20,051 nucleotides of DNA from a virus. Below, piece by piece: positions 4,191 through 20,051 of this stretch (position 1 is its first letter; the number at the start of each line of letters is the position of its first letter). The DNA lies in the IMG/VR virus record IMGVR_UViG_3300020160_002022, positions 1 to 20,051 of that record; one strand, 5' to 3'. The translations under genes were made by a program, and so were the position numbers. The notes below the pieces were generated by a model. It did not search any database. It was not told the origin of the DNA and saw only the letters and a program-made list of their open reading frames with translations.

Positions 4191-5018
4191 TCACTCTTCA
4201 ACGATGATTTGTGAGCCAGGGAAACTAATCCTTGTGCATTCCTCAATGAGAGCCATGAGGATTTGTGGCGTTGCCGTCTCTAGGGTTGGCTTCGGTGCGC
4301 CATTGGCAAACTCGTTCCAGAACTGGCCCAACTGTGCTTTTTGTTCGGCGTTGAATGAGCCACTCAGTGTTCGGAATTGCTCCCACAGGGCAGCAACCTT
4401 GGGGTCAATCTGTGGTCGTGACTGCGCCATATCGTGCTCAATCTCAATGCTGAGTGCTTCATCAGAGCGAGCGAGGTATAGGGCTACACCGAATTGTTGA
4501 GCAGCCTTTTTGAGTGCGTCAGAAACAGCGCCCTTAAACTCGTCGCCAAGGTCAACAATTTCCCCTGCTTTGGTTCGCTTAATCTTTTGACCTCCGAAAC
4601 CGTCTTTAGTCACTGCCATCCAGCCATCGCCACCGTGTGTACTTAGGCGAACATGGGCGACAATGAAATCGGGGTCTAGTGGGTCGCGTTCGCATCTAAT
4701 GATTTCGGAAGACCAGCCTGCAATGCCGAAGCAACGATTAAGACGCGCAATAACTTCACTAACGGGGATATATGTGAGTGCCGTACCGCCCTTACGAAGT
4801 TCCCGCTCCACTTCCGGAGGGAAGGGTTCGCTCAAGTCCATGAGAAGGCGATGACCATCTTCTTTACGCTTTTGCTCGTCCTTGGCCCGCTTCTCGGAAT
4901 AAAAAGCATCTTCCGCAATTCGTTCCTGCAGGTAGTTATGTGTTACTTCGGGTAATTCGCTGTGCACTTTTTCGTCTCCATTTATCTCATTGGTCGGTTG
5001 TTTTTTTGCTGTTGCCAT
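4191..5018 (-). CDS. Rad52-family single-strand annealing protein (275 aa)
   Basis: The core at about residues 62-185 matches the Rad52/Rad22-like pattern: LTYIPVSEVIARLNRCFG followed by IAGWSSEI (81-106), strands through FIVAHVRLSTHGGDGWMAV, and the conserved helix GDEFKGAVSDALKKAAQQFG at 158-177. These proteins form rings on single-stranded DNA and promote annealing. The C-terminal 80 residues are a looser helical tail, where such proteins often bind an SSB or a partner nuclease. I chose the ATG at 5018 because AAGGA lies six bases upstream; a longer in-frame reading to 5087 would overlap the preceding gene and has no such signal. The adjacent Cas4/RecB-like nuclease is the natural exonuclease partner. 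Confidence 0.87.
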   Translation of the reverse strand: MATAKKQPTNEINGDEKVHSELPEVTHNYLQERIAEDAFYSEKRAKDEQKRKEDGHRLLMDLSEPFPPEVERELRKGGTALTYIPVSEVIARLNRCFGIAGWSSEIIRCERDPLDPDFIVAHVRLSTHGGDGWMAVTKDGFGGQKIKRTKAGEIVDLGDEFKGAVSDALKKAAQQFGVALYLARSDEALSIEIEHDMAQSRPQIDPKVAALWEQFRTLSGSFNAEQKAQLGQFWNEFANGAPKPTLETATPQILMALIEECTRISFPGSQIIVEE

Positions 5019-5035
5019 AGCCGTTCCTTCTTCTA

Positions 5036-5521
5036 TTACTTCTTGGACGTTATGGAAATACTGACTTTGCCTTCGGACTTTTCGCAATATGAATCAGCCG
5101 AAACGCCAATTTTCCCCAGTTCACCGACACGCCAATACGATGGTGCCGCGTAATCAAGCATTTTCGCCATCATCTCCATTGGAGACAATAAGACCTCGCC
5201 CGTGTCCATGTCAATGGATGATTCGTAGATTCTGTTGGCGACGATTGAAGCGAGACTCTTGTGGTCCCATGCTTTTCTGTCTGCCCCAGTTCGGCGCTCA
5301 ACCTGTTGGCCCGACGAGAGGACAATAATGTCTTCTTCCATCTTGCCAATCGCAGCCTGCTCAAGTTCGCTGTCTAGCATGCCAATATCTCTCTTGAGTT
5401 CGCGAAATGCATATAAAATTTCACAAATCTCCGAGACCTCTAGGTCTGGCGAATTCACTGATTCGGCGATGCAGTTGCTTAGAACCTGCCGAATATCGGC
5501 AATGCGCTCTAGTGCATTCAT
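5036..5521 (-). CDS. Conserved phage protein of unknown function (161 aa)
   Basis: Not assigned to a known activity. The N-terminal half is helical (ALERIADIRQVLSNC, then EICEILYAFRELKRDIGML and EQAAIGKMEEDIIVL). The second half has a more distinctive pattern: SSGQQVERRTGADRKAWDH near the middle, then DMDTGEVLLSP, then APSYWRVGELGKIG and a C-terminal strand-rich end. I recall similar proteins beside recombination genes in actinobacterial phages, always as hypotheticals. The ATG at 5521 is preceded by AAGGGG five bases upstream; the open frame extends to 5647 but overlaps the terminase gene and has no signal there. It lies between the terminase and the Rad52-like gene with short spacers, so it probably shares their transcript. 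Confidence 0.8.
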   Translation of the reverse strand: MNALERIADIRQVLSNCIAESVNSPDLEVSEICEILYAFRELKRDIGMLDSELEQAAIGKMEEDIIVLSSGQQVERRTGADRKAWDHKSLASIVANRIYESSIDMDTGEVLLSPMEMMAKMLDYAAPSYWRVGELGKIGVSADSYCEKSEGKVSISITSKK

Positions 5522-5547
5522 TGGAACCCCTTCCGTATTAGGTATCT

Positions 5548-6852
5548 TCAGACGATGATACCCACACGCCTGCGTTGAGGCAACCCCAAACCAGCAAGAT
5601 GTGTGAACGCGCCAACGGCAGAGTCCACTTGGTCGTCGTGGTCGCATGCCTCGGGGAAGGTTGACAATTCATCTAGCCAGTCTGTTAGCCACGGGCCACG
5701 CACGCACCTCACGTTGCCGTTGGCTACGGCTGCCGCAAATGGTCGCGCTCTCGTAACCTTGTCGCCCGTTGACCTGATTCCCAGGAAATCAAATCCCGGA
5801 AGAACGTATCGCGCGTACTGGTCAACCAATCCCTTGCCAGATGAGCCTGGCTCTTGTTCCATGCGGATTGCAACCGTACCCCCATCTTCGTAGGCAGTTT
5901 GGGAAATGAATGCTTCCACCTTCTCACCTCGGACTCTGGCTCGGCGGACATCGAGGATATAGGCTATTCCGGCATCAAATAACATCAATGTCCCAACAGT
6001 CCAGTCTGGATTCGGGTTCGTATGAGATGGCTCTGTGGCGGCAAGGTCCCAAAATCTGACGGCGCGGGCAGATGCGGAGATTCTGGGAATATCAGTTTGG
6101 TCAATAATCACGATGGATTCTCGTTGGAACATTGAGCCAAGGGTTGTTGCCCACCAGTCACCCTCCTCTAGGCGACGGCGTTCAACTGGGTCTAGGGCTT
6201 GCAGGGCAGTACGGTAAGAGTCAGCATCAATTCCGGGGTTATCTGACAATTTGGATGGAACAAAAATACGACCCTCAGTTTGCCCTTCTACGATGAATCG
6301 TTGGCGAACCCAGTTCGGCGCAGGGTTGCAGGCGGAGCGCATTCTCAAGGGGACTTGAGCCAGTGGGCCCGAAGCAGGACGACGCAGACGGGAGAACATA
6401 TATCTGTAGTCCGACTCTCTGATTTCAGTGACTTCGTCCATGCCAATAAATTGAAATTCAGCACCCTTGTAGCGTAGGAAGTCCTGCTGGTTATTTAGGT
6501 AACCGAAAGAAAGTCGTGCTCCGGAAGGGAATACTGCCGTGTAGTTGTTCGCATTCCAGCGAACATCGTCAACGGTTGACATCCAACTAATAAACCGGTC
6601 CATAATGGCTCCGGGAAGTGCCAAGTCGGCATAGGTGCGACGGAATATGATGGCAGAATAGCCAGGAACGTCAACATATTGCAACGCTGACATTAACAAC
6701 GCGGAAGATTTCCCACCGCCAGCCGCTCCTCCGAATAGTGCCTCTAATGAATATGTTCTGAGGAAAACCTTTTGAGTAAGAGAAGGTTCTTCTGGGCAGA
6801 ACGATGGTTGCTTTGGCTCCAGAAATTGGAGAACTTTATTCCAGTCCGTCAT
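5548..6852 (-). CDS. terL: Terminase large subunit (434 aa)
   Basis: DNA-packaging motor protein with both expected domains. ATPase: Walker A GGAAGGGKS at residues 41-49, Walker B FQFIGMDE at 133-140 with the catalytic Glu140, and a coupling-type SACNPAPNW at 173-181. RNase H-fold nuclease: Asp269 in RFWDLAATE, a middle EQEPGSSGKG motif, and the C-terminal DHDDQVDS (Asp407 and Asp410). Length is normal to slightly short for the family. I chose the ATG at 6852 because GGAG lies six bases upstream; TTG at 6864 and ATG at 6855 are alternatives. Unusually, it is on the strand opposite to the portal and heads the minus-strand recombination run. No small terminase is recognisable in the window. Confidence 0.95.
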   Translation of the reverse strand: MTDWNKVLQFLEPKQPSFCPEEPSLTQKVFLRTYSLEALFGGAAGGGKSSALLMSALQYVDVPGYSAIIFRRTYADLALPGAIMDRFISWMSTVDDVRWNANNYTAVFPSGARLSFGYLNNQQDFLRYKGAEFQFIGMDEVTEIRESDYRYMFSRLRRPASGPLAQVPLRMRSACNPAPNWVRQRFIVEGQTEGRIFVPSKLSDNPGIDADSYRTALQALDPVERRRLEEGDWWATTLGSMFQRESIVIIDQTDIPRISASARAVRFWDLAATEPSHTNPNPDWTVGTLMLFDAGIAYILDVRRARVRGEKVEAFISQTAYEDGGTVAIRMEQEPGSSGKGLVDQYARYVLPGFDFLGIRSTGDKVTRARPFAAAVANGNVRCVRGPWLTDWLDELSTFPEACDHDDQVDSAVGAFTHLAGLGLPQRRRVGIIV

Positions 6853-6911
6853 CATCCACTCCAAACGGCTCGCAATGTATTAGATTGTCTCTCGTGAATC
6901 ACTTCAAGGCA

Positions 6912-6928
6912 TATAAGCACGATAGCAT
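6912..6928 (+). promoter_or_regulatory. Possible -10 element and very short leader before the head operon
   Basis: A TATAAG hexamer at 6912-6917 lies about 12 bases before the ATG at 6929, and no ribosome site is visible. If this is a -10 element, the transcript would start only a few bases before the ATG, that is, nearly leaderless. There is no good -35 at the usual distance; the nearest TTGTCT (6885-6890) is about 21 bases away. The 76-base spacer between the divergent terminase and head genes must hold promoters for at least the + strand, so this is offered at low confidence. Confidence 0.3.
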
Positions 6929-7138
6929 ATGAAAACAATCATCGCGAAATTGCTAATCAAGTTACGGATACACCTCCAAAGGGAACGCATCATAACCCGT
7001 TCCTTTTCTGCCCATTGTTTAATGGTATTGTTTATTTTGCTTACGGCCATTGGAGCAGGTCTTTTATTGCCGCCTTTGGCCCTTATCGTGGCAGGTGTAA
7101 ATTGCGGACTATACGGATATCTGCTGGGTTCTGATTAA
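6929..7138 (+). CDS. Small two-helix membrane protein (69 aa)
   Basis: The N-terminus is basic (KLLIKLRIHLQRERIITR), and from about residue 29 to 66 the protein is hydrophobic with Gly/Pro breaks (LMVLFILLTAIGAGLLLPP, then LALIVAGVNCGLYGYLLG). This suggests a membrane hairpin with the basic end inside the cell. No catalytic motif is visible and I do not recognise a family. It precedes the portal by two bases, so the two are very likely translated from the same message. The start is uncertain: the ATG at 6929 has no ribosome site, and an internal ATG at 7022 would remove the basic region. A membrane role such as holin-like or superinfection-related would be pure guesswork. Confidence 0.65.
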   Translation: MKTIIAKLLIKLRIHLQRERIITRSFSAHCLMVLFILLTAIGAGLLLPPLALIVAGVNCGLYGYLLGSD

Positions 7139-7140
7139 CT

Positions 7141-9165
7141 ATGGCATGGAACAAAACTGAAAATAAATCACTCGAAAATCAAGCGCAAAAATCTGCATTT
7201 GGTCCGGGTGGAACGGTTGCTCAAAATGCCTCGTACGTAGGCAAAGGGTATCGTGACCCATGGGATATTGAGCGAGCCTATAAAGAGGGCATGCAAAAGG
7301 TCACCTGGGTTGCACGGTGCATCGATGCCATCGCTGGCAACCAGGCAAGATTGCCTATTGTCTTACGAAAAGATAACTCGCCTGACGGAATGATTGTCAA
7401 AGGTAAGACAGCAAAAAATAGTGGTTTACTAGACATCCTGAACACCAAATCTAATATTGGTGAAAACTCTTTTATCTTTAGGTACAGAGTCTCATCACAA
7501 CTCCTACTAGGAACGCGCGGAGTCTTTATTGAAAAGGTGCGTGGACGTGATGGGGGCATAATTGGACTAAACCTGCTCCCCCCGCAGTCAACCGCCCCAA
7601 TCCCTGACCCAAAGACATTTGTTTCTGGCTACGAAGTACTGATGCCCAACGGTGACAAGGTCATCATGAAGCCAGAGGATGTGTGCTGGATTCGTAGACC
7701 ACACCCAATTGACCCATATCTTTCGCTCACGCCGATGGAGTCAGCGGGTATTGCCATTGAGATTGAAAACCTTGCAAAGTTATACAACAGAAACTACCTA
7801 CTCAACGACGGTCGTCCTGGTGGATTGCTCGTTTTACGTGGGGAAATTGATGACGACGACAAGGATGAACTACGTAACAGGTTCAGAGGCAACCTCGGTC
7901 GCGTAGGTCAAACAACCGTAATTTCCGCTGATGATGGGGTTGACTTTGTTGATACATCATCAAGCCCACGAGACGCCGCCTATATTCAAATGCGCCAGAT
8001 TACAAAAGAAGAGATTCTTTCTTCATTCGGCGTTCCGGAATCAGTTATTGGTAATGCTGCGGGCAGAACGTTTTCAAATGCAAGCGAAGAAATTCGTGTT
8101 TTTTGGAATGAAACAATGTCTCCGCACCTTGAGGTCATTGCCCGTGCGTTAGATGAACTTGACGCAGAGCATTATATTGATTTTGATACTTCAAGTGTTC
8201 CAGTCCTAATTATTGCAAAACAAGAAGTTGAGCGATATTTGCTGGATGAATTGCGTGCTGGACTCATTTCAGTCAACGAATATAGAACTGGCACTGGGCG
8301 CAAGGATGTTGAGGCAGATTTGGCTGACAGCCTTCTTATGAACCCCAACCTCACTCCCATTGCCAATACAAAGAAGCCAATGGCACCTCCTCAAGAGGGG
8401 ATGCCAATGCCAGGAGCAGGCGGCCCAGGAATGCCGCCAGGTGCACCAGGAATGCCTCCAGGGATGCCAGGAATGCCTCCTGGAGCCCCAGGCGGAGGAA
8501 TGCCAGGAATGCCTCCTGATATGCCAGCAGCGCCTCCTCCGGACCCGACCACGATGGCTGGAGCAATGGCTCTTGAGTCTATGGGTGGTGGAGCGCCCCC
8601 AGGGATGGCGGCGATGGGCGCCAGCACTTCTGAAATCCTGACAAAAGATGATTCCAGTGAGACGTCACTGTCTAGGTGGACAGAAATTCTTGACCGAGGA
8701 ATTGAGCGAGTCTTAGAGCGCATGCAACGAGTTGTTATAGAAAAAATGAACGGGCAAAAATCTCGCAAGTCCTTAATGCAGGGCTCGCTTGATATTGATT
8801 CGGTTTTTTCTTTGGAAATCTGGCATAAACAACTAGAGGAAGACATTAAACCTGTTCTTTCTACGATTATCCGTGACTCTCAGGCTCTTTATTTTGAGAA
8901 ATCTGATGGCTACAGGATTCCCACAGCCCAAGATACGGTCATCAACATTGATGCGCAAATGATGCGAATTAAAGAAATTATCGACAATGTCCATACGCAG
9001 GTGGGGTCGGCAATCTATAACTCATACGGCATCAGCGATGAGGCTGCTCGTAATTCGGCCCTTCGTTCATCTGTGACTTCCATATTCATCGATGCAATCG
9101 CCAACATCAAGCCGCGAGTAGCGTCTGGCGAAGCCCGCCGAGCATGGGAATTTAGTCGCCCTTAG
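7141..9165 (+). CDS. HK97-family portal protein with Met-Pro-Gly-rich insert (674 aa)
   Basis: The portal forms the dodecameric ring at the capsid vertex through which DNA enters and leaves. Residues 1-400 follow the HK97-portal pattern: WVARCIDAIAGNQARLPIVL near 56-75, the clip/stem region SAGIAIEIENLAKLYNRNYL at 201-220 followed by DGRPGGLLVLRGEI, then ITKEEILSSFGVPESVIG at 287-304 and SNASEEIRVFWNETMSPHLE. Residues about 414-492 are a low-complexity insert of PGM-type repeats. Residues 500-674 form an extra charged helical domain with RWTEILDRGIERVLERMQR and a C-terminal DEAARNSALRSSV region; its role is unknown. Portals are often 400-500 residues, so this one is long. It starts two bases after the membrane-protein stop, without a clear ribosome site, and leads the protease and giant gene. 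Confidence 0.9.
   Translation: MAWNKTENKSLENQAQKSAFGPGGTVAQNASYVGKGYRDPWDIERAYKEGMQKVTWVARCIDAIAGNQARLPIVLRKDNSPDGMIVKGKTAKNSGLLDILNTKSNIGENSFIFRYRVSSQLLLGTRGVFIEKVRGRDGGIIGLNLLPPQSTAPIPDPKTFVSGYEVLMPNGDKVIMKPEDVCWIRRPHPIDPYLSLTPMESAGIAIEIENLAKLYNRNYLLNDGRPGGLLVLRGEIDDDDKDELRNRFRGNLGRVGQTTVISADDGVDFVDTSSSPRDAAYIQMRQITKEEILSSFGVPESVIGNAAGRTFSNASEEIRVFWNETMSPHLEVIARALDELDAEHYIDFDTSSVPVLIIAKQEVERYLLDELRAGLISVNEYRTGTGRKDVEADLADSLLMNPNLTPIANTKKPMAPPQEGMPMPGAGGPGMPPGAPGMPPGMPGMPPGAPGGGMPGMPPDMPAAPPPDPTTMAGAMALESMGGGAPPGMAAMGASTSEILTKDDSSETSLSRWTEILDRGIERVLERMQRVVIEKMNGQKSRKSLMQGSLDIDSVFSLEIWHKQLEEDIKPVLSTIIRDSQALYFEKSDGYRIPTAQDTVINIDAQMMRIKEIIDNVHTQVGSAIYNSYGISDEAARNSALRSSVTSIFIDAIANIKPRVASGEARRAWEFSRP
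8380..8616 (+). repeat. Low-complexity Met-Pro-Gly-rich coding repeat in the portal
   Basis: Repeated CCAGGAATGCC(T/G)CC units encode a run of GMPPGAPGMPPGMPGMPP-type residues (portal residues about 414-492). The repeat is nearly free of charged residues and looks like a flexible spacer between the portal core and its C-terminal domain. Near-identical DNA units suggest expansion by slippage. Confidence 0.85.
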
Positions 9166-9201
9166 TTTCAGTAAACTCACGTAGAATTATTTACTGAAAC
9201 T
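9164..9201. promoter_or_regulatory. 12-bp perfect inverted repeat after the portal gene
   Basis: AGTTTCAGTAAA (9164-9175) and TTTACTGAAACT (9190-9201) are perfect reverse complements with a 14-base centre; the left arm includes the last two bases of the portal stop codon. The stem is AT-rich and no strong T run follows, so it is a poor intrinsic terminator. It could be an operator for a dimeric regulator, an RNA hairpin that protects or divides the message, or a partial terminator tuning portal to protease ratios. A second, shorter palindrome (ACTCAT at 9224-9229, ATGAGT at 9235-9240) lies just downstream, across a possible start codon of the next gene. Confidence 0.6.
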
Positions 9202-9273
9202 CTATCTATTTGCCCCTAGTTGCACTCATAGTTGATGAGTAGAACTATTATTAAGAGCGTCGTTAGGAGCGGT

Positions 9274-10650
9274 ATGTCTACAGACCAAATCAGTTTCAAG
9301 GCACTAAATGGCCAGATTAATATTGATGAAGCACAAGGTATTGTCGAGTGTTTCGTTGCCGCAGTCGGCAACAAGGACTCAGTGGGCGATGTTGTCGCTA
9401 CTGGTGCGTTTACTGAAAGTCTCAAGCGCCGCAAGCCTCGTGTTGTTTGGGGGCACAGTTGGAACGACCCAATTGGTAAAGTTCTAGAAATCTACGAAGT
9501 TCCTACTAGCGACCCGCGATTGCCAATGAAGATGAAGCAAGCCGGTGTTGGGGGACTGTTTGCGAAGGTTCAGTTTAACTTGGCTACAGAAAAGGGACGC
9601 GAAGCATTCGCTAGCGTTGCCTTCTTCGGCCAAGAACAAGAGTGGAGCATTGGCTATAAGACGCTCAACGCAACATTTGACCCTGGCTCACAGGCAAACA
9701 TCCTTCACGAAGTTGAGTTGTATGAAGTGAGCCCAGTTCTACATGGAGCAAACCAACTCACCGGAACAATCTCTGTCAAGAGTGATGAGGGCGAAAAGTG
9801 TGGGGGCCCCATGGCCCATATGCCAAGCATGCCGTCCGGACCCGCCATTGTTGGTCGTCCAGTTCTTTCGCCGGTTGTTCGCCAGGTACATTCGCCCAGC
9901 CCACAGCGCCAACAGAGCCGTGAAGATATCTTTGAAGAAGGGGAATCACGCGTTCTCCCAGACGAAGCACGCAATGCTCTCGCCTTGGAACTAATGAGCA
10001 GGTCGCGCCTACCCCTAGACATCATTCACGCAACGGAAAACTCAGTCACCTTTAATCGCGATGCTGGAAATGGCAATTCAGTAACCTACAGACTTTCATA
10101 TCATCGTGAAGAAGAAACTGGCGAGTACATGTTTGGCAAACCAGAAAAAATTGGGATGCGCAATGAACAAAGCACGATGCCGTCGGCTCCGGTTGTTATT
10201 CCTTCGCAGATGCCTTCAATGCGCATGAACGTCAAGCCTGGTTCTGGCATGCCTACTGGGATGATGTTCCTTGCTTCTGGCGGCAAATCCCTGGATGAAG
10301 CATTGGATGAAGCCGCTGACGTCATTATTGATGTGGCGACGAGTGGCGGTATGGCTTTGCCCGCGGACAAATTGCAATACGCGATTGACCTTCTTCAGAG
10401 CATTAACGGCTCCAAGCAAGACCCTGCGGAAGAAGAAGTCTTTACGGTTCTCTGCTCACCAGATGAGGCGTACCAAGTAAAGAGTTTGCTTGACCCAGTC
10501 ATTGAATACCACCGACTGGATGCTGAAGTAGACAACCAAGGTGTCCATATCTCCAATGGCCTGACGCAAGAAGCAATCACCGCACTAGAGAACATCGCAC
10601 TCACGATTGATGACGTTCTCTACGGCCAGGCTGGTGGTTCAAAAAAATAA
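9274..10650 (+). CDS. HK97-type prohead protease with long C-terminal extension (458 aa)
   Basis: Residues about 8-170 are a U35-type prohead protease: QGIVECFVAAVGNKDSVGD, the catalytic-His motif VVWGHSW (His61 from this start), and the catalytic-Ser motif EWSIGYK (Ser125), then ELYEVSPVLHGAN. These proteases act inside the immature head, cutting scaffold and capsid precursors. About 285 further residues follow: a Pro/Met-rich linker, a segment with NALALELMSRSRLPLDII, another Met/Pro linker, and a C-terminal helical region with SLDEALDEAADVIIDVA and SPDEAYQVKSLLDPV. This extension is much longer than a bare protease and may act as a scaffold. I chose the ATG at 9274 because AGGAG precedes it, though the spacing (4) is short. 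ATG 9235 or TTG 9232 would add 13-14 residues. Confidence 0.9.
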   Translation: MSTDQISFKALNGQINIDEAQGIVECFVAAVGNKDSVGDVVATGAFTESLKRRKPRVVWGHSWNDPIGKVLEIYEVPTSDPRLPMKMKQAGVGGLFAKVQFNLATEKGREAFASVAFFGQEQEWSIGYKTLNATFDPGSQANILHEVELYEVSPVLHGANQLTGTISVKSDEGEKCGGPMAHMPSMPSGPAIVGRPVLSPVVRQVHSPSPQRQQSREDIFEEGESRVLPDEARNALALELMSRSRLPLDIIHATENSVTFNRDAGNGNSVTYRLSYHREEETGEYMFGKPEKIGMRNEQSTMPSAPVVIPSQMPSMRMNVKPGSGMPTGMMFLASGGKSLDEALDEAADVIIDVATSGGMALPADKLQYAIDLLQSINGSKQDPAEEEVFTVLCSPDEAYQVKSLLDPVIEYHRLDAEVDNQGVHISNGLTQEAITALENIALTIDDVLYGQAGGSKK

Positions 10651-10652
10651 TA

Positions 10653-13600
10653 TTGCCCGACTTTACTGAGTTAGGGCTCAACGCCGAATCTAAAGCACTG
10701 GGCGGGAAAATCGGCCAGCGTATTGGCGGTGGTCTTCGTGCTGCCCCTCCTGGGATGTCGTTCGTTGACGTAACTGGACGCGTAGATGCCGACAACGATG
10801 GAATTGTTTTTGAGGGGCTCCCCCTTGAACGGCCAATCATTCCACGATTCACCGTACCTACCAATTTGGCACGAAGTATCTCAAAACTGACCGAGGGTGA
10901 TGCCTTAGATATTGAGAAACAACGAAGGGCTGGCAATAGTCAAATATCATTTGATGAAAACAAGTTGCGCTCAATCGTAGAGACAGTAAGTGGCGATGCC
11001 GATTCTTTGGGCTCAGCGAATACTAGAACTCGCTTGAGCAAGCGAAGCACCATTGAAAGACCCTCTAGCGGCGACACTCCTGGCACTAGGTCAAAGATAG
11101 TTTCTCAATGGCTGGATGTCACTTCGTATGAATCATTCGGCGAATCGGGCAGGGAATTGGGGAGTACTTTTGGGCGAGTAGATTTAGAAAAGTTGCAAAA
11201 AGTACTACAAGGCGAACAATCCGCCCTATCAAAAACTATTGATGAATGGCAGAAAACGGGCGTATGGAACGGGGAAACAAACGGCGTTGCGATGCCGAGG
11301 GTGTATAACCCCAAAAAAGGCATAACGACGAATCTTTCGGTGGAAGAATTGGAACCATACAAAGACGAAATGGGTTCCAGATTCAATAACTATCTATCTC
11401 AGGTCGAAAAACAACTACAGCATGTAAATGACCGATTAGCAAACTTAGATAGAATGGAAAATGATGGAGATATTGCACACGTAAATGCTGTATCAATTCT
11501 TGACTTGCCGAATCTCAAGGACCTCGCCGAACGTGGCAAGAAAATAAGAACATCGCGTGGCGCTGACAGGGAGTGGTCGTTAACTGAAGCGGACCCCGAT
11601 GCGACGTGGTTGGTTCACACTGGTGTGCCAATACTTGAGAACGATGTTCTTGACCCGTCATTCACCTTGCCCAAGGGCGGCGACGGAACATACATGCGCC
11701 AAAGCATGGATACCCAAAGGCTCAATGGTTATACGCGAAACAGCATCATTAGTCGCTATGAGGAGGCGGAGCGCAATTTCAACGCCTATCAACTCGCGTT
11801 GAAGGAATATGATGAAACTGGAGTTTGGGATGGGCCAAAATTGGCCACAAATACAAGAGTTCCAGATAGGGATAGAGGCCGCAAGGAATATCAGACCTAC
11901 GTAGAGGGTCAAGATGATGCAAAAATTAATCCTGAATATTTGAGGAATATTGCTCGTGGCTATATCGATGACGGGCAAAGGGTGATGGCTCGGTATGAAT
12001 ATGCTTACCCGCTAGCAAAAGCAGGGAAAGAACATCTTAGTTACAGTCATGCGTCCTTCGGACCCAGCAGGGGATATGTACGCAATGACTTCCCAACAAG
12101 CAAAACATACCTCGTAAGAATTCCCAATGAAGAAATAGTAGAGGGGTTCCCGTCTCAGGAGTTTCAGATTTTTGATGCCAGAACACCAATAGCAAGTTTT
12201 GAGGTACCCAACCAGTTTAATCTTCCAAATATGACGGAGGCGGAAGATGCTTCTATCGCATTATTTGAAGAAGCCGCACAGAAACATATTTCAAGTAATC
12301 GCCTAGTCTCCAGCACTAGGTCGAGCCGCTCAAATCTCAGTTTGCGTTCAAGGTTTGAACCAACCGAAGCAATGAAAGAGAAAAAAATACGCAATGCTGA
12401 GAGATACGAAGCAGTGTTGCGTTGGAAAGAGCAGCACGCTGAAGACATGCTGGAACTCAATAGTGAACTCGCTAGTGTTATCGCACAGGCCAAGGCTGCA
12501 GTACAAGATGTCGACAAATCAAAACTTAAAAAAATATTTGGTTCACTCATGCCCGAATCGGAGGTGGAAGAACTTACCAGTAATCTTGCCAAGCGATTTG
12601 ACTTACTCAACAAGTCACTGCGGGAAAATCGTCGGCCGTTGTACGGACTTTTTGATTCATCAACTAACGAAGTTTTGCTTAACATTCTTCAAAATTTTGT
12701 CCCAGAATCTCCGGAACGAGATAGGACTATCAAGCAACTCAAAAAAGTAATTGCAGACAGGTCAAAATCATCACGACCAAGGTTGGGTGGAGAAGAACGA
12801 ATACTGGCCAATGACTTCATAAGTCCAGATGAATTCATTGATTCTGGCTGGTGGGGTGCTTGGCTTTATCCAGACGGTCGCATTTATCCAGTTGAGGGTC
12901 ATCAGAACGAGCATCTCTACGAAGATGCATTCGACGACGGCCTTGTTCGGTTGATATTTAATCCAGACGCCGGTCTTACTGTTGTTTCTACTGGAGCGTC
13001 CGATGACCAATTAAATGTCGTAGTCCAACTTGCTACTCTGGCTCGTGGGAAAGAACTCATATTCCACCATGAGGGCAACGAGGCCATCAAGGATTTTGGG
13101 CCTGAGGCTATTACGACTGGCGAGTTGGACCTATTCTCGAAACCAGCGCCAGAAAAAATCAAAAAGTTTATACAAACGCTAGATTACAGCAAAACTCCAG
13201 AGTTCATTCCAACTTGGTTAAGGCGAGAAAAAACTCCATTGCTTAGTACGAGGTCTCGTACGAGAACAACACAAGCGGTCGATGGCGAGATTCCGCGTCG
13301 TAACAGGATTGCACGTGGTCGTCGTGGCGAGTTGACGCAAGAAGAAGATATCGCCGAAGGTCTCGCGGAGATAGAAGAGGGACGGCAAGCGAGTCCATGG
13401 GAGAGGTATTCAATTCTCCAGAGTGATGACGGCGTCTACTATGCGGATAGAATTTCTCCCAAAGATGTCTCGCGCATGCGTGCTGGCAAACTCAAGCCAC
13501 CCGTGTATCCATTCTTTGCCCCACGCGGTGGTGGCAGTAATCAAGAAACTGGAGAAGGTTATTATTTCTCCGTTACTGGTCAAAAATTCAACGGTCGCTA

Positions 13601-16600
13601 TGGAGCGTCTGGAGCATTGGTTCGTCGCCGTCGTGGACGTTTTGGCGAGTATGAGTATCTACTAGCGCGTCGTGCTCCATGGATGAGTTCGGGCGGGGGA
13701 CAATGGTCATTCCCAGGTGGTGTCCATAAAGATAAAGACAGTTCCGAGATTCCGATGGAAACGGCAGTAACTGAGTTCAGGGAAGAAGTTGGCGGAGACC
13801 TAGAAGGCCTTACTCCGGTTTATTCTTATCGTGACCAGCGCGCACCAGACTGGGCCTACGACACACACGTCTACGAAGTAGGGCGACGAGACCTTTCTGA
13901 CATCAACGTACTTGATGGCGAGAATACCGAAGTTCAATGGTTTACCGCCAATGAGATTATGGGTCTTAATAAGAACGGGGAACTTCTCCATTCTTTTGGT
14001 TTAGTCGCTCCAGAAATATTCACTAACTCAGGAGATGATTCACTCATACGACGCGAGCCAGGTGGACTTGGGCGAATGTTTGGGAAGTTACGTGGCGGCC
14101 AACGAGAATCAGGCGAGATGGCGCTTATGTCTACTCGTTCCAGCAGGCCTCTATCTCCTACGGAAGATAGGCGACTCGCAGTTAAGGCGTTAGACCTTAG
14201 ACAGCGATTTGAAGCACTTATCAAAGAGATGCGAGACGAACGAATAGCAAAAAATGCTGCATTATTGAATATTGTTGACGACATTACCAAATTGGTAGAC
14301 GGCGGCTCTCTGACCAAAAATGAATTGGAGACAATAAGGCACATAAGTGCACGTGCCGACAATCCGCTCTACTCGCCTTCACTTACTCGTGACGTTCTAC
14401 TTATACGCCTGCAGCAAGATATTCTTCAGGTATCACGTGAGAGGGAGTTGACAGAAGACGAAACGAACCTACTGTCAATAATTAGTAATCAAATAGAGCG
14501 TAAATTCAAAGATACTGAGCCAACTCGTAGAAGCGTAGAAGTGCGGCCACTGCAGATGGAATTCATAACCCCTGAAGAATTTGCTGATTCTGGTTTTGCT
14601 GGAGCATGGCTATATCCAGACGGAACGGTCTATCCAGTTATTAACGAGCACGCGGATGAGCACGACATCATAAATTCATTTGATGATGGGATTGTGCGGC
14701 TCCGCCTATCTCACGAAAACTTAACGCGGTACCGTGACGAGCGAGAAGGGGCTCAATGGAATCAGATAAAGCCTTATATGGGCGTTGAATATGGTAATCG
14801 TCAATTTACGGATGAACAATTACAAGCGCTTGAGAGAATTTATGTTCGAAGGAAAGCGGGGATTCTTTCTTATTCAATCCACGACGAAGAAGAAATGGAT
14901 TTTGCTAGGCGCACAGGGCAAATGAAAATTGCTAAAAAAGATAAAGCAGTTACGCTTGGCACGCTTGATGCAAGGGAGCGAAGCGCTGTCGGGGACACCA
15001 TACGAGGCCAGATGGGCGATGCAAGCCCTCCAGTGCCGCGCAGCGAGGGCTACGCCTATGTCAGCACTCGAAGTTCGTCATCAATCAATTTGAGCGAACC
15101 CGATATGGGTAGTGACGGCGATATTGAGGATGTGGCAACGGAAAGCGGACTGATGTCAACTCGTTCACGACGTGGCAAAAACCGCAAAAAGTGGAATGTT
15201 ACTGGAGATAAAAAAGTAACTGGTGATATGAAGAAATTGACTCCCGAACAGGTCAGATTAGAGCAGGAACAAAAGCGCCGAGCAGCAAGAATTCCTGGAA
15301 AGCGTAAAGACGGACCATCGTCGCGAGAGTGGCTCAATGTAACCCGAAGTGCTGTTGCACCTGGAGCCAATGCCAAGGAACAATACATAAATAGTCTTTC
15401 GGCCACGAGGGCTGGCGGAGAACTCAAGGTAATTGGTCGTCCATTGTCGTCTCAGAATGCTAATGGCACCGTTTCTTATATTTCATTCGGCGGCGATATT
15501 AAGCCTGGAGATATTCTGCCAAATAACTTTATGCAGTCACTTGGGTCGCAAGGGGAATCACGATACTCGGTTGCGTCGGTTCAGCGAATGCGAGATGGGG
15601 TTAGTAAATTAGCCCTTAGGGACCTCATGACTGGCAAGGCTATTGCATCAGTCATTTCTGACGACCAGCAAATTCTAGACGCGAATCGTCCTGCGAGTAC
15701 ACGCAGTGGTCGTGTGAAGATACCCGCAGTGTGGCGAGATACGGTGGAGGACTTCCGTGCGGGCCTAACTGACGCAATAGTCATGCGAGTGCGCAACGCC
15801 ATGCAAGAAAGAGAAGACGTAGGAAATGAACTAAGTCAATTAGATGCACAATTTGATGCCAATAATCAAGAATGGCCAACAAGTGAAATGGAATATCGTG
15901 CTGAATTTTTGGATGACGCCAGACTTGCTATAACCCGAGAAGTAGAAGAAATGCTCGCCGCTGTACAGCACCTTGTGCGCGAAGAACGCCAAGCAGCATT
16001 AACTGCAGCATCTTTTAAGAAAGCAAAGAAACGGGCATCCATATATGAAGACAGATATGAAAAGTTTGAACTTGAGCCAGAAGATTGGGCTGATGTTTTA
16101 TCTCTACTCGAGTACGACCCAACACTAGAAAGAGCGCTTTTCGATACAGGACCGCAAGGCATGTCACGACAAGTTGGAATGAATCGAACTTCCGCATCGC
16201 AATTGGCAGATGAACTTAACAAGTTGACGGAGTACATTGGTTACATTGAGACTCTTGAAGTTGACTCAATCATTAATGGCAGGGATATTGATGAAGAAGA
16301 TTCCTCATTCATTGACAGGTCCGCGTCAGAGATTCTAGAAAACGCAATTCTTTCCGTTCGTCGCAAGAAGAAACTAGCCGATGCCAAAAAGGCCATCATT
16401 AATACCACGGCAACGGAATTGGACGAGCGCGCAGTGTTGGCGATATCACCCTCAACACGAAGTGTCGCTTCTCCCCGCATAACTAGTAAAGCCACAGTCA
16501 AAATGGGGAATGACTTACGTAATTCTGAGCAGTTATTCCCAGGTAGGGCAAGCAAGTTTTCTAACTCCAATGTCTCATTCGTTGCATACGACGGCAATCG

Positions 16601-19259
16601 CAATGAACTGATTGTTGGCAGAGACGGCGGAATTTATCGCTATGGCGGAATGAACGATGACATTATTGATACGTTCACCAAAAGCAGAAAGCCTATTGAT
16701 GCGTCAATAAATCAACTGGACAAGGATTCTAGTTATACGGTGTCACCGGACGGAAGTCGTCGTGGCCTCGTCCCAGGACTTACTCAACTCCTTGAACGTG
16801 ATGCGCGTAGGGTAAAACTAAGTTCCGCAGAGACATCTACGATAAAGAATCTAGCAAAGGCATATTCCGCCTCGTCTGCGGACGAGATTGTCCCCATTGA
16901 CCCAATAAGGGCTCACTCCATTGCTAAGAAACTGTTTGCCAACCAAGAGGCTGCTGCTGCCATAAATATCATTGATGCCCTTGAGGACTCTAGGAGCGCA
17001 CGTCTTTTGCCAGAAGGAATAGCCCCCATGTATCGCGGGCTTCCAAAAACTCCTGCTAGCAATATCAGTATCGTTGTAGACAACAATGACGCTGGAATAG
17101 TTCGCGAAGAATTGGCAGACTTGAAAAAGCGTTTTGCCAATAATCGTGAGGTTGCTTCGGCACTAGATGTGTACGACAAACTTATTGCTGCGGGCCAGAG
17201 CGGCGGACTTAAGACCGCGTTCAGTATGTCCCCAGCAGAATATGAGTTTATTCGCGATGGCGTCAGGACTCTACGTTCGTCCAATATGAGTAATGGGGTA
17301 GCGAGTATTGCCCTACTTGACCATGCGGCATCATCTCCAAAATTGAAATTTGATGCAACCAATTTCCCTCAAACCAATGGGACCGACGTTGGGTCGCTAT
17401 TCAACTCGGGAGCACCCTACTCGCTCAATAAAGAGCGCCGTCAAGAATTGCTCGACTGGGCCAAAGAGTCAAATATGAAGGTTGCCCAATCATTGGCTGA
17501 TGAAAAGTTTAAGACAATAGCCACATGGAAGTCTCTTGAGGCCCTGAGGGAATTCTCTATGCCTACACGTTCGGCGGTTGGTCCATCGGCGGCAAAGAAG
17601 GGCAGCAAGGAAGTCGGCACGCCATTCGCAGAGATGGCACCACCTGATTATGCCGATATGGCACCGCTAGACAAGTTGTCTTGGATTAAGGAAAACATAG
17701 TTCAAGAAGGCGGCAATAAGGGCTTGCGCAGAGATGAGGGCATTAAGCAGGCAAAAGAAATAATGGATGCCGTCAACGTTATCCAGGACAATCTGAATCG
17801 TCGTGAGAATTATGAAAACGTAATTTACGGCAATGGCTCTGGCACGGCTGCTACCCCCAATTTTGCAAAATCATGGAGTTCACTCTCGACGGGAACAAGG
17901 TCAATTCTTGACGACGAGTCAAGAAGCGTCTATTCCAATGACTTCCGTAATCTCAATAACTCTCAGGCTGCGGATATTGTTCGTCGCCTACGACCCGAAT
18001 CGGATAAAAGGCGAACTGGGGTTTATGAAATACCCGAAAACGACCTCAGCCTAATATGGGATGATGTTATGACCTCAAGTCAACAACTACTTGATGCCAT
18101 TGATAAGCGACGTGAACTCGGACTTGAAGATGAAGTGTTGGATGTCCCAAGAGTCCCCGCTCGCGAGTCACGAGTGCAACCCCCCAAGGCCCCCGGTCTC
18201 GGCGGGATGCAATTACCGATGTCTATTAGTGGACCTGAAAAGACAACTCAGACAAGGACCCCTGACTCACCTTCAAACCCAACGGCAGCAAAAGTTCGCA
18301 GACAACGCATTGCTTCTGGAATAAGCGATGCCGTCAAGGAATATCAAGACAAACTTGATTCTGTTTACTCTAATAGGTATGAAGATAATCGCCATTCACA
18401 GGTATGGAAAGATATAGATAAGTTATTTGCAGGCGATAATGGCGCTGGTGTTGATTTTGGCATTGGGAATATAGATGATGCTATTGACATTCTGGATGAC
18501 TACCTAACCAGCGATTTTGTTATGGACGCCGTAGATGGTAAGCCCAACGGGTTTGCTCCACGCGCATCGGTAATTGCCAAAAAATATGTACAAGAGAGCA
18601 TAGAGAGAGCGTCGGGCACTCGTGACTACTTGAATAAGTTGCGCAACGAATTAATGACTGATGAATTTATCAACAAAACACCTGGTCGAGGCGCATCGCT
18701 GGTTCGTACTATGCCAGAGGCAGATACTCCCCCGCAGACTCGGTACGTTCCAAAAATACGTGGACGAACAATTGATTCATACTTTGCTGCTCGCAAAAAT
18801 GAACTTTTATTGAGTACTCGCTCTACTCGGTCCTCGGTCAAAGAGGGTAGAGCAGAGATACGAGCAGAGCGTACAAAATTCAATGAACTCCTTAACTCAT
18901 TAGACAGGGAAATAAGTAAAGCCGATGACCCTCGTCATGTGGCAGCATTGAAAACTTTGAAAACAACCTTGACTCGCCAGAAGTCAGGCAAGTTGAGCGA
19001 CAAGAGAACTAACGCTGGAGCACTGTATTTAACGCAAGATGAAATTGATGACATTATTGAAGCACTTTATGTTGCTCTAGATAGACAGGTCGAGCGAGGC
19101 AGCGAGGCCAGGATTGCGTTATTTGGAGAAATGGCTGAACTTATGGCCAAGGCTGCTATGGCTACTTTCATCAACAAGACTTCAGAACCAGTCAACTCAC
19201 GGACGGTCACCAAGATAAATGAGAACGGCGAAGAGGTTGAGATAGCGCTGAATGATTAG
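10653..19259 (+). CDS. Giant multidomain protein with Thr-Arg-Ser linkers, probable virion polyprotein (2868 aa)
   Basis: A single uninterrupted 8.6 kb frame, TTG start two bases after the protease stop with no own ribosome site, so probably translated by coupling. The protein is hydrophilic, with no signal peptide or membrane segment seen. In order: an N-terminal region with a DxDxDG loop (residues 45-50); a 147-554 segment with two TGVW(D/N)G repeats (202, 389); cassette A (554-865); a Nudix domain (about 965-1130, box 1023-1048); cassette B (1160-1471), a paralogue of A; short basic linkers (1502-1682); a KTSC-like segment (about 1970-2030); and helical C-terminal parts. Twelve xTRS linkers (residues 144, 554, 865, 1160, 1471, 1502, 1563, 1682, 1934, 2304, 2414, 2721) divide these parts. 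It sits where scaffold or capsid genes usually follow the protease. I infer a packaged polyprotein, possibly cleaved at the linkers; an uncut internal or injected polyvalent protein is the main alternative. Confidence 0.85.
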   Translation: MPDFTELGLNAESKALGGKIGQRIGGGLRAAPPGMSFVDVTGRVDADNDGIVFEGLPLERPIIPRFTVPTNLARSISKLTEGDALDIEKQRRAGNSQISFDENKLRSIVETVSGDADSLGSANTRTRLSKRSTIERPSSGDTPGTRSKIVSQWLDVTSYESFGESGRELGSTFGRVDLEKLQKVLQGEQSALSKTIDEWQKTGVWNGETNGVAMPRVYNPKKGITTNLSVEELEPYKDEMGSRFNNYLSQVEKQLQHVNDRLANLDRMENDGDIAHVNAVSILDLPNLKDLAERGKKIRTSRGADREWSLTEADPDATWLVHTGVPILENDVLDPSFTLPKGGDGTYMRQSMDTQRLNGYTRNSIISRYEEAERNFNAYQLALKEYDETGVWDGPKLATNTRVPDRDRGRKEYQTYVEGQDDAKINPEYLRNIARGYIDDGQRVMARYEYAYPLAKAGKEHLSYSHASFGPSRGYVRNDFPTSKTYLVRIPNEEIVEGFPSQEFQIFDARTPIASFEVPNQFNLPNMTEAEDASIALFEEAAQKHISSNRLVSSTRSSRSNLSLRSRFEPTEAMKEKKIRNAERYEAVLRWKEQHAEDMLELNSELASVIAQAKAAVQDVDKSKLKKIFGSLMPESEVEELTSNLAKRFDLLNKSLRENRRPLYGLFDSSTNEVLLNILQNFVPESPERDRTIKQLKKVIADRSKSSRPRLGGEERILANDFISPDEFIDSGWWGAWLYPDGRIYPVEGHQNEHLYEDAFDDGLVRLIFNPDAGLTVVSTGASDDQLNVVVQLATLARGKELIFHHEGNEAIKDFGPEAITTGELDLFSKPAPEKIKKFIQTLDYSKTPEFIPTWLRREKTPLLSTRSRTRTTQAVDGEIPRRNRIARGRRGELTQEEDIAEGLAEIEEGRQASPWERYSILQSDDGVYYADRISPKDVSRMRAGKLKPPVYPFFAPRGGGSNQETGEGYYFSVTGQKFNGRYGASGALVRRRRGRFGEYEYLLARRAPWMSSGGGQWSFPGGVHKDKDSSEIPMETAVTEFREEVGGDLEGLTPVYSYRDQRAPDWAYDTHVYEVGRRDLSDINVLDGENTEVQWFTANEIMGLNKNGELLHSFGLVAPEIFTNSGDDSLIRREPGGLGRMFGKLRGGQRESGEMALMSTRSSRPLSPTEDRRLAVKALDLRQRFEALIKEMRDERIAKNAALLNIVDDITKLVDGGSLTKNELETIRHISARADNPLYSPSLTRDVLLIRLQQDILQVSRERELTEDETNLLSIISNQIERKFKDTEPTRRSVEVRPLQMEFITPEEFADSGFAGAWLYPDGTVYPVINEHADEHDIINSFDDGIVRLRLSHENLTRYRDEREGAQWNQIKPYMGVEYGNRQFTDEQLQALERIYVRRKAGILSYSIHDEEEMDFARRTGQMKIAKKDKAVTLGTLDARERSAVGDTIRGQMGDASPPVPRSEGYAYVSTRSSSSINLSEPDMGSDGDIEDVATESGLMSTRSRRGKNRKKWNVTGDKKVTGDMKKLTPEQVRLEQEQKRRAARIPGKRKDGPSSREWLNVTRSAVAPGANAKEQYINSLSATRAGGELKVIGRPLSSQNANGTVSYISFGGDIKPGDILPNNFMQSLGSQGESRYSVASVQRMRDGVSKLALRDLMTGKAIASVISDDQQILDANRPASTRSGRVKIPAVWRDTVEDFRAGLTDAIVMRVRNAMQEREDVGNELSQLDAQFDANNQEWPTSEMEYRAEFLDDARLAITREVEEMLAAVQHLVREERQAALTAASFKKAKKRASIYEDRYEKFELEPEDWADVLSLLEYDPTLERALFDTGPQGMSRQVGMNRTSASQLADELNKLTEYIGYIETLEVDSIINGRDIDEEDSSFIDRSASEILENAILSVRRKKKLADAKKAIINTTATELDERAVLAISPSTRSVASPRITSKATVKMGNDLRNSEQLFPGRASKFSNSNVSFVAYDGNRNELIVGRDGGIYRYGGMNDDIIDTFTKSRKPIDASINQLDKDSSYTVSPDGSRRGLVPGLTQLLERDARRVKLSSAETSTIKNLAKAYSASSADEIVPIDPIRAHSIAKKLFANQEAAAAINIIDALEDSRSARLLPEGIAPMYRGLPKTPASNISIVVDNNDAGIVREELADLKKRFANNREVASALDVYDKLIAAGQSGGLKTAFSMSPAEYEFIRDGVRTLRSSNMSNGVASIALLDHAASSPKLKFDATNFPQTNGTDVGSLFNSGAPYSLNKERRQELLDWAKESNMKVAQSLADEKFKTIATWKSLEALREFSMPTRSAVGPSAAKKGSKEVGTPFAEMAPPDYADMAPLDKLSWIKENIVQEGGNKGLRRDEGIKQAKEIMDAVNVIQDNLNRRENYENVIYGNGSGTAATPNFAKSWSSLSTGTRSILDDESRSVYSNDFRNLNNSQAADIVRRLRPESDKRRTGVYEIPENDLSLIWDDVMTSSQQLLDAIDKRRELGLEDEVLDVPRVPARESRVQPPKAPGLGGMQLPMSISGPEKTTQTRTPDSPSNPTAAKVRRQRIASGISDAVKEYQDKLDSVYSNRYEDNRHSQVWKDIDKLFAGDNGAGVDFGIGNIDDAIDILDDYLTSDFVMDAVDGKPNGFAPRASVIAKKYVQESIERASGTRDYLNKLRNELMTDEFINKTPGRGASLVRTMPEADTPPQTRYVPKIRGRTIDSYFAARKNELLLSTRSTRSSVKEGRAEIRAERTKFNELLNSLDREISKADDPRHVAALKTLKTTLTRQKSGKLSDKRTNAGALYLTQDEIDDIIEALYVALDRQVERGSEARIALFGEMAELMAKAAMATFINKTSEPVNSRTVTKINENGEEVEIALND
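12312..13244 (+). repeat. Cassette A of the giant protein (311 residues)
   Basis: Runs from the STRS linker at residue 554 to the one at 865. The first 150 residues are helical and charged. Then follows FISPDEFIDSGWWGAWLYPD starting at residue 722, YPVEGHQNEH, FDDGLVRLIF and, near 785-812, DDQL...KELIFHHEGNE. Cassette B repeats the same order and length, so the two arose by duplication. I do not recognise the domain. Confidence 0.8.
13245..14129 (+). other. Nudix hydrolase segment of the giant protein
   Basis: This segment lies between the STRS linkers at residues 865 and 1160. It holds a Nudix fold: GASGALVRRRRGRFGEYEYL, then GGGQWSFPGGV and the box G1023-x8-E1032-x7-T-E1041-F-R-E1044-E1045-V-G-G, followed by THVYEVGRR and TEVQWFTANEI. 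Nudix enzymes cut nucleoside diphosphates linked to another group (NAD, ADP-ribose, Ap4A, dNTPs, capped RNA). The metal-binding glutamates are present, but the usual Arg of the REUxEE motif is Thr and the first loop is about three residues longer, so activity is probable but not certain. The substrate cannot be told from sequence. If the flanking linkers are cut, it would be released as a protein of about 290 residues. Confidence 0.8.
14130..15062 (+). repeat. Cassette B of the giant protein (311 residues)
   Basis: Runs from STRS at residue 1160 to STRS at 1471, exactly as long as cassette A. After a helical first half it has FITPEEFADSGFAGAWLYPD from residue 1304, YPVINEHADEH, FDDGIVRLRL and, near 1390-1416, DEQL...ILSYSIHDEEE, matching cassette A position by position. 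The first halves have diverged more than the FIxPxEF domain. Confidence 0.8.
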
Positions 19260-19277: not shown

Positions 19278-19415
19278 CAGCATATAATTGCTGTATACTC
19301 TAAACCCAGAAGACAATTTTATATTTAACCTTTCCACTGGGGAGTCGTCATTGCGACTACTATCTCATTGGAGCAGAACAGTACGCTGTGGTCCAACCTA
19401 CAAGGAGTCGCAACA
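19278..19415 (+). promoter_or_regulatory. Leader region with hairpins and -10-like boxes
   Basis: The 156-base gap after the giant gene is the longest on this strand and is densely patterned. TATAAT (19283-19288) is an exact -10 consensus and forms the loop of a perfect CAGCA/TGCTG hairpin (19278-19293); TATACT follows at 19294-19299. No matching -35 is seen at the usual distance. Further on, AGTCG/CGACT (19343-19347, 19354-19358) can pair around a TTG, and GGAGTCG occurs twice (19341-19347, 19404-19410), each time next to a possible start codon. It probably gives the next gene separate, strong or regulated expression. Confidence 0.5.
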
Positions 19416-19419
19416 ATGA
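19351..19419 (+). CDS. Possible 22-residue leader peptide, overlapping the next start
   Basis: A short frame starts with TTG at 19351, six bases after a strong GGGGAG ribosome site (19339-19344). It encodes 22 residues (LRLLSHWSRTVRCGPTYKES, then two Gln) and stops with TGA at 19417-19419. That stop overlaps the next gene's ATG as ATGA, the usual arrangement for translational coupling. The start codon lies in the loop of a small hairpin. It may be a regulatory leader or chance. A rival reading is that the ribosome site serves an upstream in-frame extension of the next gene from a rare ATT at 19350. Confidence 0.3.
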   Translation: MRLLSHWSRTVRCGPTYKESQQ

Positions 19420-20051
19420 GTTATCAGCAAAAGGCAATCGTAAAAATTGATAGTGATGGTGCGGTTGCTAAGTGCGCCAAGGGCCTAGCAGGCACCGAGT
19501 GCGGCTACAAGGCTGGCGCCAAGGTGTGCGGCAAGTGTGGCGCAATGGCCGTCGAGGTCAAGATGGTGCCCGTCAACGAGATGGCAGAAGCCCCAGAAGA
19601 CGAATTATCCGAAGAGGAATATAAGCAGATGATGCGAATGCGTCGTGCCAACAAGGAAATGGGCATGGCTATGGACGAAGACATGGAAGACGAAGAGGAT
19701 TCTGCAGTCTCCAACTATCTTGAGCCCATGAAAAAAGGCGGAATGCTTATGCCAATGCCCGCCGATGAAATGATGGACGAAGAAGAAGAAAAAATGGCCA
19801 TGGCTTACGAAAAAATGATGCGTATGCGTAAGGGTATGGGCATGGGTATGGGCGAAGAAGAAATGATGGACGACGACGAAGAAGTTATGGCCACCCCCAA
19901 GGGCATGCGCTGGGGTAAGCGTATGACGTCCTATAAAGAAGAAGACGAAGAAATGATGGAGGGTGACGAGGACGAAGAAATGATGGAAGACGAGGAAGAC
20001 GAGGACGAAATGATGCCCATGCGCCCCGCTGCTTCTGGAATGGCCCCCGAC
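19416..20051 (+). CDS. Met/Asp/Glu-rich protein with N-terminal Cys4 zinc-ribbon-like motif (partial, at least 212 aa)
   Basis: An open frame from ATG 19416 (AAGGAG eight bases upstream) to the window end with no stop. Residues 1-46 contain Cys20, Cys29, Cys38 and Cys41 (C-x8-C-x8-CGKC), a zinc-ribbon-like spacing. From about residue 55 the sequence is extreme in composition: runs of Asp/Glu mixed with Met pairs (EEYKQMMRMRR, DEMMDEEEEKMAMAYEKMMRM, KGMGMGMG, DEDEEMMEDEEDEDEMMPM). It has no hydrophobic core that I can see. Its place after protease and giant gene and its acidic, probably flexible nature would fit a scaffold, or the N-terminal scaffolding part of a capsid precursor whose fold lies beyond the window. 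Neither is shown by motif. Confidence 0.8.
   Translation, partial: MSYQQKAIVKIDSDGAVAKCAKGLAGTECGYKAGAKVCGKCGAMAVEVKMVPVNEMAEAPEDELSEEEYKQMMRMRRANKEMGMAMDEDMEDEEDSAVSNYLEPMKKGGMLMPMPADEMMDEEEEKMAMAYEKMMRMRKGMGMGMGEEEMMDDDEEVMATPKGMRWGKRMTSYKEEDEEMMEGDEDEEMMEDEEDEDEMMPMRPAASGMAPD

What the first reader, a model, noticed from the sequence alone, without database searches (positions are those of the whole stretch)
12312..15062. Two paralogous 311-residue cassettes flank the Nudix segment
Linker-to-linker distance is 311 residues in both (554 to 865 and 1160 to 1471). Each has a helical half, then F-I-x-P-(D/E)-E-F-x-D-S-G-x-x-G-A-W-L-Y-P-D-G, Y-P-V, an H-x(2-4)-E-H patch, F-D-D-G-(L/I)-V-R-L and a late D-(D/E)-Q-L region. 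Equal length with diverged sequence suggests an old duplication of a linker-bounded unit, supporting the idea that the linker-to-linker piece is the functional unit. The domain is unknown to me; the conserved His/Glu/Asp patches could be a metal or active site.
Basis: seen in the sequence. Interest (0 to 1): 0.75.

Follow-up and report, generated by a model that had tools for sequence, protein, structure and literature searches.

The report
Duplicated module in phage effector polyprotein

Summary
Confirmed: residues 554-864 and 1160-1470 of a 2868-aa ORF (10653-19259) are true paralogues. Profile comparison gives 99.9%, E 6e-32 for the alpha/beta core and 89%, E 2e-6 for the helical half; controls score under 2%. 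Both copies are predicted with the same order of helices and strands. Not confirmed: equal length as evidence. The 311/311 match is coincidence, and the Nudix-flanking order is not conserved. The core occurs in 14 other viral contigs of 2.9 million, once as a linker-bounded core alone. It has no significant match in Pfam, PHROGs, NCBIfam, PDB sequences or 50,697 phage records. 'Linker = unit boundary' is supported by other evidence: related phages carry up to four giant ORFs with a lineage-private linker (STRS, SMRS, GM[SR]S, SSRS or GSKS) that changes in concert at homologous junctions, is written in diverse codons, and lies beside (once fused to) the S78 maturation protease. One whole unit moved linker to linker and bears the recipient's linker. 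Best reading: a virion effector polyprotein of the polyvalent kind, probably cut at its linkers by that protease. Cleavage, injection and the cassette's own activity are not shown.

The parts
7141..9165 (+). portal protein gene
   Evidence: PF04860, E 1.3e-45
9232..10650 (+). S78 prohead (maturation) protease gene; inferred to cut the linkers
   Evidence: PF04586, E 1.3e-13; PHROG 80, E 1.3e-28; directly upstream of the polyprotein in relatives and fused to it in G016
10653..19259 (+). giant polyprotein ORF, 2868 aa, TTG start
   Evidence: orthologues in L002, L006/G001, L019, L022/G003, G008, G009, G016, G022
10653..11021 (+). shared N-terminal domain (DVTGRVDADNDGIVFE...ERPIIPRF), candidate head-packaging domain (inference)
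   Evidence: also starts or heads two other giant ORFs of G001
11082..12311 (+). unit aa 144-553, exchanged whole between phages
   Evidence: 76% identical end to end to a GMRS-bounded unit of G009; positional counterpart in G001 only 28%
12312..12323 (+). linker STRS, aa 554
12312..13244 (+). cassette 1 (aa 554-864)
12366..12764 (+). helical half of cassette 1 (cassette residues 19-151)
   Evidence: AlphaFold2 model
12798..13181 (+). WLYPDG alpha/beta core of cassette 1 (WLYPDG at 12861-12878)
13245..13256 (+). linker STRS, aa 865
13611..13967 (+). Nudix domain of the unit between the cassettes (unit 13245-14129)
   Evidence: PF00293, E 2.1e-8 for the whole protein
14130..14141 (+). linker STRS, aa 1160
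14130..15062 (+). cassette 2 (aa 1160-1470)
14157..14510 (+). helical half of cassette 2 (cassette residues 10-127)
   Evidence: AlphaFold2 model
14544..14954 (+). WLYPDG alpha/beta core of cassette 2, with an extra hairpin (WLYPDG at 14607-14624)
15063..15074 (+). linker STRS, aa 1471
15156..15167 (+). linker STRS, aa 1502 (SMRS at the homologous junction of G008, GMSS in G009)
15696..15707 (+). linker STRS, aa 1682 (SMRS in G008)
16452..16463 (+). linker STRS, aa 1934
18813..18824 (+). linker STRS, aa 2721 (SMRS in G008, GMAS in G009)

Best explanation
The two pieces are paralogous copies of one module in a virion effector polyprotein of a tailed phage. The giant protein is a chain of independent units joined by a lineage-specific short peptide (here STRS) and headed by a shared N-terminal domain. 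Shown by sequence: the duplication, the shared predicted fold, exchange of a whole unit between linkers, concerted change of linkers across the giant ORFs of a genome, the place beside the S78 maturation protease and one natural fusion to it. Inferred: the chain is built into the prohead, the S78 protease cuts at the linkers, and the freed units stay in the head and enter the host with the DNA, where each acts alone. The cassette would be one such unit, a helical bundle plus a WLYPDG alpha/beta core kept in two diverged copies, most likely a binder or inhibitor of a host target rather than an enzyme; this last step is a guess.
For: Paralogy; models. Linker tetrapeptide far above shuffled maxima and private to each lineage: G001 STRS 37 against 7, G008 SMRS 16 against 6, G009 GMSS 16 plus GMRS 14 against 6, G016 SSRS 15 against 6, G022 GSKS 26 against 6. 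Same junction, different linker in other phages. Nine linkers here written with nine different 12-base sequences, so selection acts on the protein. Unit aa 144-553 is 76% identical end to end to a GMRS-bounded unit of G009, against 28% to its counterpart in G001. A single core is a linker-bounded unit alone in G022. Protease directly upstream in six genomes, fused to the polyprotein in a seventh. Sister units in relatives include Zeta toxin, ArdC-N, MPTase-PolyVal, KTSC and pentapeptide repeats. Precedent: prohead protease gp245 of phage SPN3US cuts nine head proteins at a short A-x-E motif (PMC10052503).
Against: No cleavage, packaging or injection was observed. The protease's catalytic region is 81-98% identical between phages with different linkers, so a strict enzyme-site code is not obvious. 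G008 mixes SMRS with some STRS and SSRS. The candidate major capsid protein of G001 (4496-5803, named on sight) has no STRS. The structural neighbours of the core are weak.
Confidence: 0.6

Rival explanations
1. An uncleaved polyvalent protein: the repeated peptides are flexible spacers, the whole chain is packaged and delivered as one piece, as reported for the N4 virion RNA polymerase.
For: N4 vRNAP is packaged unprocessed (PMC5512222). All linkers are Ser/Gly/Arg-rich, as spacers are. The protease is nearly the same beside different linkers.
Against: Spacers need a composition, not one tetrapeptide repeated 9-37 times per genome and changed in concert at homologous junctions.
Confidence: 0.25
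2. The cassettes are metal-dependent or other hydrolytic enzymes with the conserved His, Glu and Asp as active site.
For: H, E, D-G and R invariant in 19 sequences; next to a Nudix unit here.
Against: D-D-G becomes D-S-G and the H-x-x-E spacing breaks in the G022 core; no enzyme fold found by Foldseek or VIA-align; the strongest conservation is a turn (W-x-Y-P-D-G), which fits a fold-defining motif.
Confidence: 0.15
3. The cassettes are structural parts of the head (inner scaffold or core), not injected effectors.
For: Gene lies among portal, protease and head genes; the cassette is absent from many relatives only where the whole unit is absent.
Against: Presence and copy number vary from zero to two between related phages, and sister units are effector-like.
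Confidence: 0.1
4. The linkers are DNA recombination sites that spread as repeats and have no role in the protein.
For: Units are exchanged exactly at linkers.
Against: Linker DNA is codon-diverse: nine of nine distinct 12-mers here, 30 of 35 in G001.
Confidence: 0.03

Closest known systems
Polyvalent proteins of phages and conjugative elements (Iyer et al. 2017, PMC5512222)
   Same: Very large multidomain proteins near late virion genes, joining unlike effector domains; relatives carry ArdC-N, MPTase-PolyVal, Zeta toxin and KTSC domains.
   Different: Here there are up to four per phage, with a uniform lineage-specific linker at unit borders and a separate S78 protease alongside; that paper ascribes processing mostly to built-in zincin metallopeptidases, names an assemblin-like peptidase at some C termini, and its text has no mention of linkers.
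Head/ejection proteins cut by prohead proteases (SPN3US gp245, PMC10052503; T4 internal proteins, from my knowledge)
   Same: A maturation protease cutting several head proteins at one short motif.
   Different: There mostly N-terminal propeptides are removed; here one chain would be cut into many units. The motif is Ser/Arg-rich, not A-x-E, and cutting is inferred.
Phage N4 virion RNA polymerase (PMC5512222, PMC12633501)
   Same: Giant (about 3,500 aa) protein packaged and ejected with the DNA.
   Different: One protein, packaged unprocessed, no repeated linker reported.
Gelsolin/ADF-H-like domains
   Same: Consistent structural neighbours of the core in both models.
   Different: Z at most 5.9, no sequence relation, no function shown.

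Membership tests
Polyvalent proteins | one polypeptide joining several domains of unlike activity | tested here: met
   Window: Nudix plus several unrelated units. Relatives: Zeta toxin, pentapeptide, KTSC, ArdC-N, MPTase-PolyVal.
Polyvalent proteins | encoded among late/virion genes | tested here: met
   Directly after portal and prohead protease.
Polyvalent proteins | carries domains catalogued as polyvalent-protein domains | tested here: inconclusive
   Yes in G009 (PF18818 E 8e-35, PF08401 E 5e-23), none above cut-off in the window's own protein.
Polyvalent proteins | delivered into the host with the DNA | not testable with these tools
   Needs virion proteomics or injection assay.
Peptidase S78 (gene 9232-10650) | curated profile match above cut-off | tested here: met
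   PF04586 51.9 bits, cut-off 21.
Nudix hydrolase (unit between the cassettes) | curated profile match above cut-off | tested here: met
   PF00293 34.7 bits, cut-off 21.1.
YqeY (helical half of cassette 1) | curated profile match above cut-off | tested here: not met
   18.1 bits, cut-off 27; 2 of 12 relatives match.
Large polyvalent protein-associated domains (LPD), for the cassette | match to an LPD profile | tested here: inconclusive
   Only LPD5, E 0.19, partial; I did not check that all 40 LPDs are in the library.
Gelsolin/ADF-H fold (core) | structural match clearly above background | tested here: inconclusive
   Best Z 5.9 (copy 1) and 5.2 (copy 2), concordant but below the usual noise ceiling.

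The most novel reading that the evidence does not exclude
These phages use a private cleavage-site code: every linker in up to four giant effector polyproteins carries one tetrapeptide that differs between lineages and is rewritten in concert. The maturation protease cuts the packaged chains into many separate effectors, and incoming units must take on the recipient's code. The WLYPDG cassette is a new, repeatedly traded effector domain of this system.
Probability: 0.45. Interest if true: 0.85.

Novelty: new variant of a known kind. Interest (0 to 1): 0.72.

Why it matters
Polyproteins cut into separate working parts are best known from RNA viruses of eukaryotes. A dsDNA phage that packages chains of effectors and frees them with its head protease would be a new way to load many injected proteins at fixed ratios. 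The linker code would show where each effector begins and ends in thousands of residues of unannotated phage protein, so that new domains such as this cassette can be cut out and assayed singly. It also makes prohead-protease specificity testable, because five natural linker sets go with closely similar proteases.

Tried and rejected
Equal 311-residue length as evidence: rejected. Cassette 1 helical half as YqeY: below cut-off, seen in 2 of 12 relatives. PDB sequence hits of the cassette profile (best E 0.004, ApcH, HA2 and others): cover helical stretches or short pieces only, taken as noise. Foldseek in PDB and BFVD: nothing with E under 0.001. Linkers as DNA recombination repeats: rejected by codon diversity. 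Relatives among 50,697 phage records: none for the whole protein; the core gave nothing, or chance hits at E 2-9. Chloroflexi MAG hit L038: a short stretch of the N-terminal domain only, no cassette. L007, a GAWLYPDG pattern hit: an unrelated small protein. No paper with 'phage polyprotein' or like phrases in the library. A resemblance from memory to a PDG-containing domain of gut mobile elements could not be tested and is not used.

Full report
WHAT WAS CHECKED. The finding lies in a 2868-aa ORF (10653-19259, TTG start) directly after a portal gene (7141-9165, PF04860) and an S78 prohead protease gene (9232-10650, PF04586). The window is a complete IMG/VR record of 20,051 bases. STRS starts at aa 554, 865, 1160 and 1471, which gives 311/311, and the motifs listed are present in both pieces.

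PARALOGY. BLASTP between the pieces gives E 1e-19. Profiles of seven sequences of each type give 99.9% probability and E 5.6e-32 over 105 columns for the core, and 89% and E 2.1e-6 over 83 columns for the helical halves; controls with two other units of the same protein give under 2%. AlphaFold2 models (pLDDT 79.3 and 77.5, pTM 0.74 and 0.76) have the same succession of elements: a helical bundle, a short helix, a beta-hairpin around WLYPDG, helix, strand, strand, long helix, strand, strand, helix; copy 2 has one extra hairpin and one extra helix. The second model used an alignment that includes copy 1, so the two predictions are not fully independent.

EQUAL LENGTH IS COINCIDENCE. WLYPDG starts 183 residues after the linker in copy 1 and 159 in copy 2. 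The close relative L002 has 315/310, L006 308/312, L019 308/351, L022 307/354. Flanking of the Nudix unit is not conserved either: L043 has cassette-cassette-Nudix, L027 two adjacent cassettes, G009 the Nudix unit without cassettes.

DISTRIBUTION. Scans of IMG/VR found the core in 14 other contigs. There are two copies in the close relatives and in L027, L043 and L046, and one in L047, L048, L049, L050 and L076; fragments may hide more. In L076/G022 the core is a unit by itself, without the helical half, between a GSKSST linker and the stop codon, so the core is the minimal module. No significant hit exists in Pfam, PHROGs, NCBIfam, PDB sequences or 50,697 phage records. In 19 sequences R, W, Y-P-D-G, Y, H, E, D-G and R are invariant. 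The G022 core changes D-D-G to D-S-G and breaks the H-x-x-E spacing, which weakens an active-site reading. The tree of cores keeps the orthologues of each copy together, with poor support at the deep forks.

LINKERS MARK UNITS. Nine related or candidate phage records were read at full length. Those with polyproteins have one to four ORFs of about 1,750-4,400 aa. The most frequent tetrapeptide of the large ORFs is private to the lineage: STRS in the window (9 against a shuffled maximum of 4), G001 (37 against 7) and G003 (13 against 4); SMRS in G008 (16 against 6); GMSS and GMRS in G009 (16 and 14 against 6); SSRS in G016 (15 against 6); GSKS in G022 (26 against 6). G019, which has one cassette, shows no such peptide. 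At homologous junctions the linker differs while the flanks stay: LMSTRSRRGKNRKKW (window) and PLSMRSRRGKNRKKW (G008); PASTRSGR and SASMRSSR. The nine linkers here are written with nine different 12-base sequences, the 35 in the four polyproteins of G001 with 30, so identity is kept at the protein level. Unit aa 144-553 is 76% identical from its first to its last residue to a unit of another polyprotein of G009 that is bounded by GMRS, whereas its positional counterpart in G001 is 28% identical. A whole unit moved, and its linker matches the recipient. G001 and G003 hold an extra unit of about 408 aa between two STRS linkers that the window and L019 lack.

PROTEASE. The S78 gene lies directly upstream of this polyprotein in G000, G001, G003, G008, G009 and G022, and in G016 both are one ORF of 4421 aa. 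A jumbo-phage prohead protease is known to cut nine head proteins at a short motif (PMC10052503). I infer linker cleavage by this protease. Against a simple code: its first 190 residues are 81-98% identical between phages with different linkers, and G008 mixes linkers.

SISTER UNITS. Pfam finds Zeta toxin, pentapeptide repeats, KTSC, ArdC-N and MPTase-PolyVal in the related giant ORFs, part of the repertoire of polyvalent proteins (PMC5512222). Three of the four giant ORFs of G001 share the N-terminal DVTGxxDADxDGIVFE...ERPIIPRF domain, a candidate packaging domain (inference).

FUNCTION OF THE CASSETTE. Both cores have gelsolin/ADF-H-like domains as structural neighbours (best Z 5.9 and 5.2), concordant but within the noise stated by the tool. 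My best guess is a binding or inhibitory domain rather than an enzyme; it is weakly supported.

VERDICT. The larger system is the interesting part: a variant of phage polyvalent proteins with a lineage-specific linker code. Cleavage and injection remain to be shown.

Noticed in passing
10653-11021; G001 ORFs 6451-14742, 15096-24467, 42581-52549: A DADxDGIVFE...ERPIIPRF domain (EF-hand-like spacing of Asp residues) heads several giant ORFs; a shorter form (DADNDGIVQEGTPFERP) occurs in more distant phages (L033, L035, L036, L037). Possibly a head-packaging signal.
   Followed up: partly
L088:2606-15868 (G016:42606-55871): Natural fusion of the S78 prohead protease with the polyprotein in one 4421-aa ORF, ending in several helix-turn-helix repeats.
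   Followed up: partly
11082-12311 and G009 ORF 6300-16121 residues 1790-2203: Unit shared at 76% identity between otherwise unlike polyproteins; a HTGVP...VLDPxF motif recurs in both and in the diverged G001 unit, perhaps an NAD-using transferase, not tested.
   Followed up: partly
L048:1676-5635: In L048-L050 the single cassette follows a stretch that looks like a PEP-utilising phosphohistidine domain and precedes a Cys-His unit (GSGNCYEAA...YNHAWVE), a unit also found in G001 and G009; named on sight.
   Followed up: no
19368-20051: Next gene: a Cys-containing N-terminus followed by a very acidic Met-rich region; about 500-600 aa in G001, G003 and G016, unknown function, after the polyprotein in each.
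   Followed up: no
G001:1-86043 (L014-L018): About 37 kb of this 86-kb phage record is four STRS-linked giant ORFs; two tRNA-Arg genes (anticodons TCT and CCT) are present, of interest given Arg-rich linkers.
   Followed up: no
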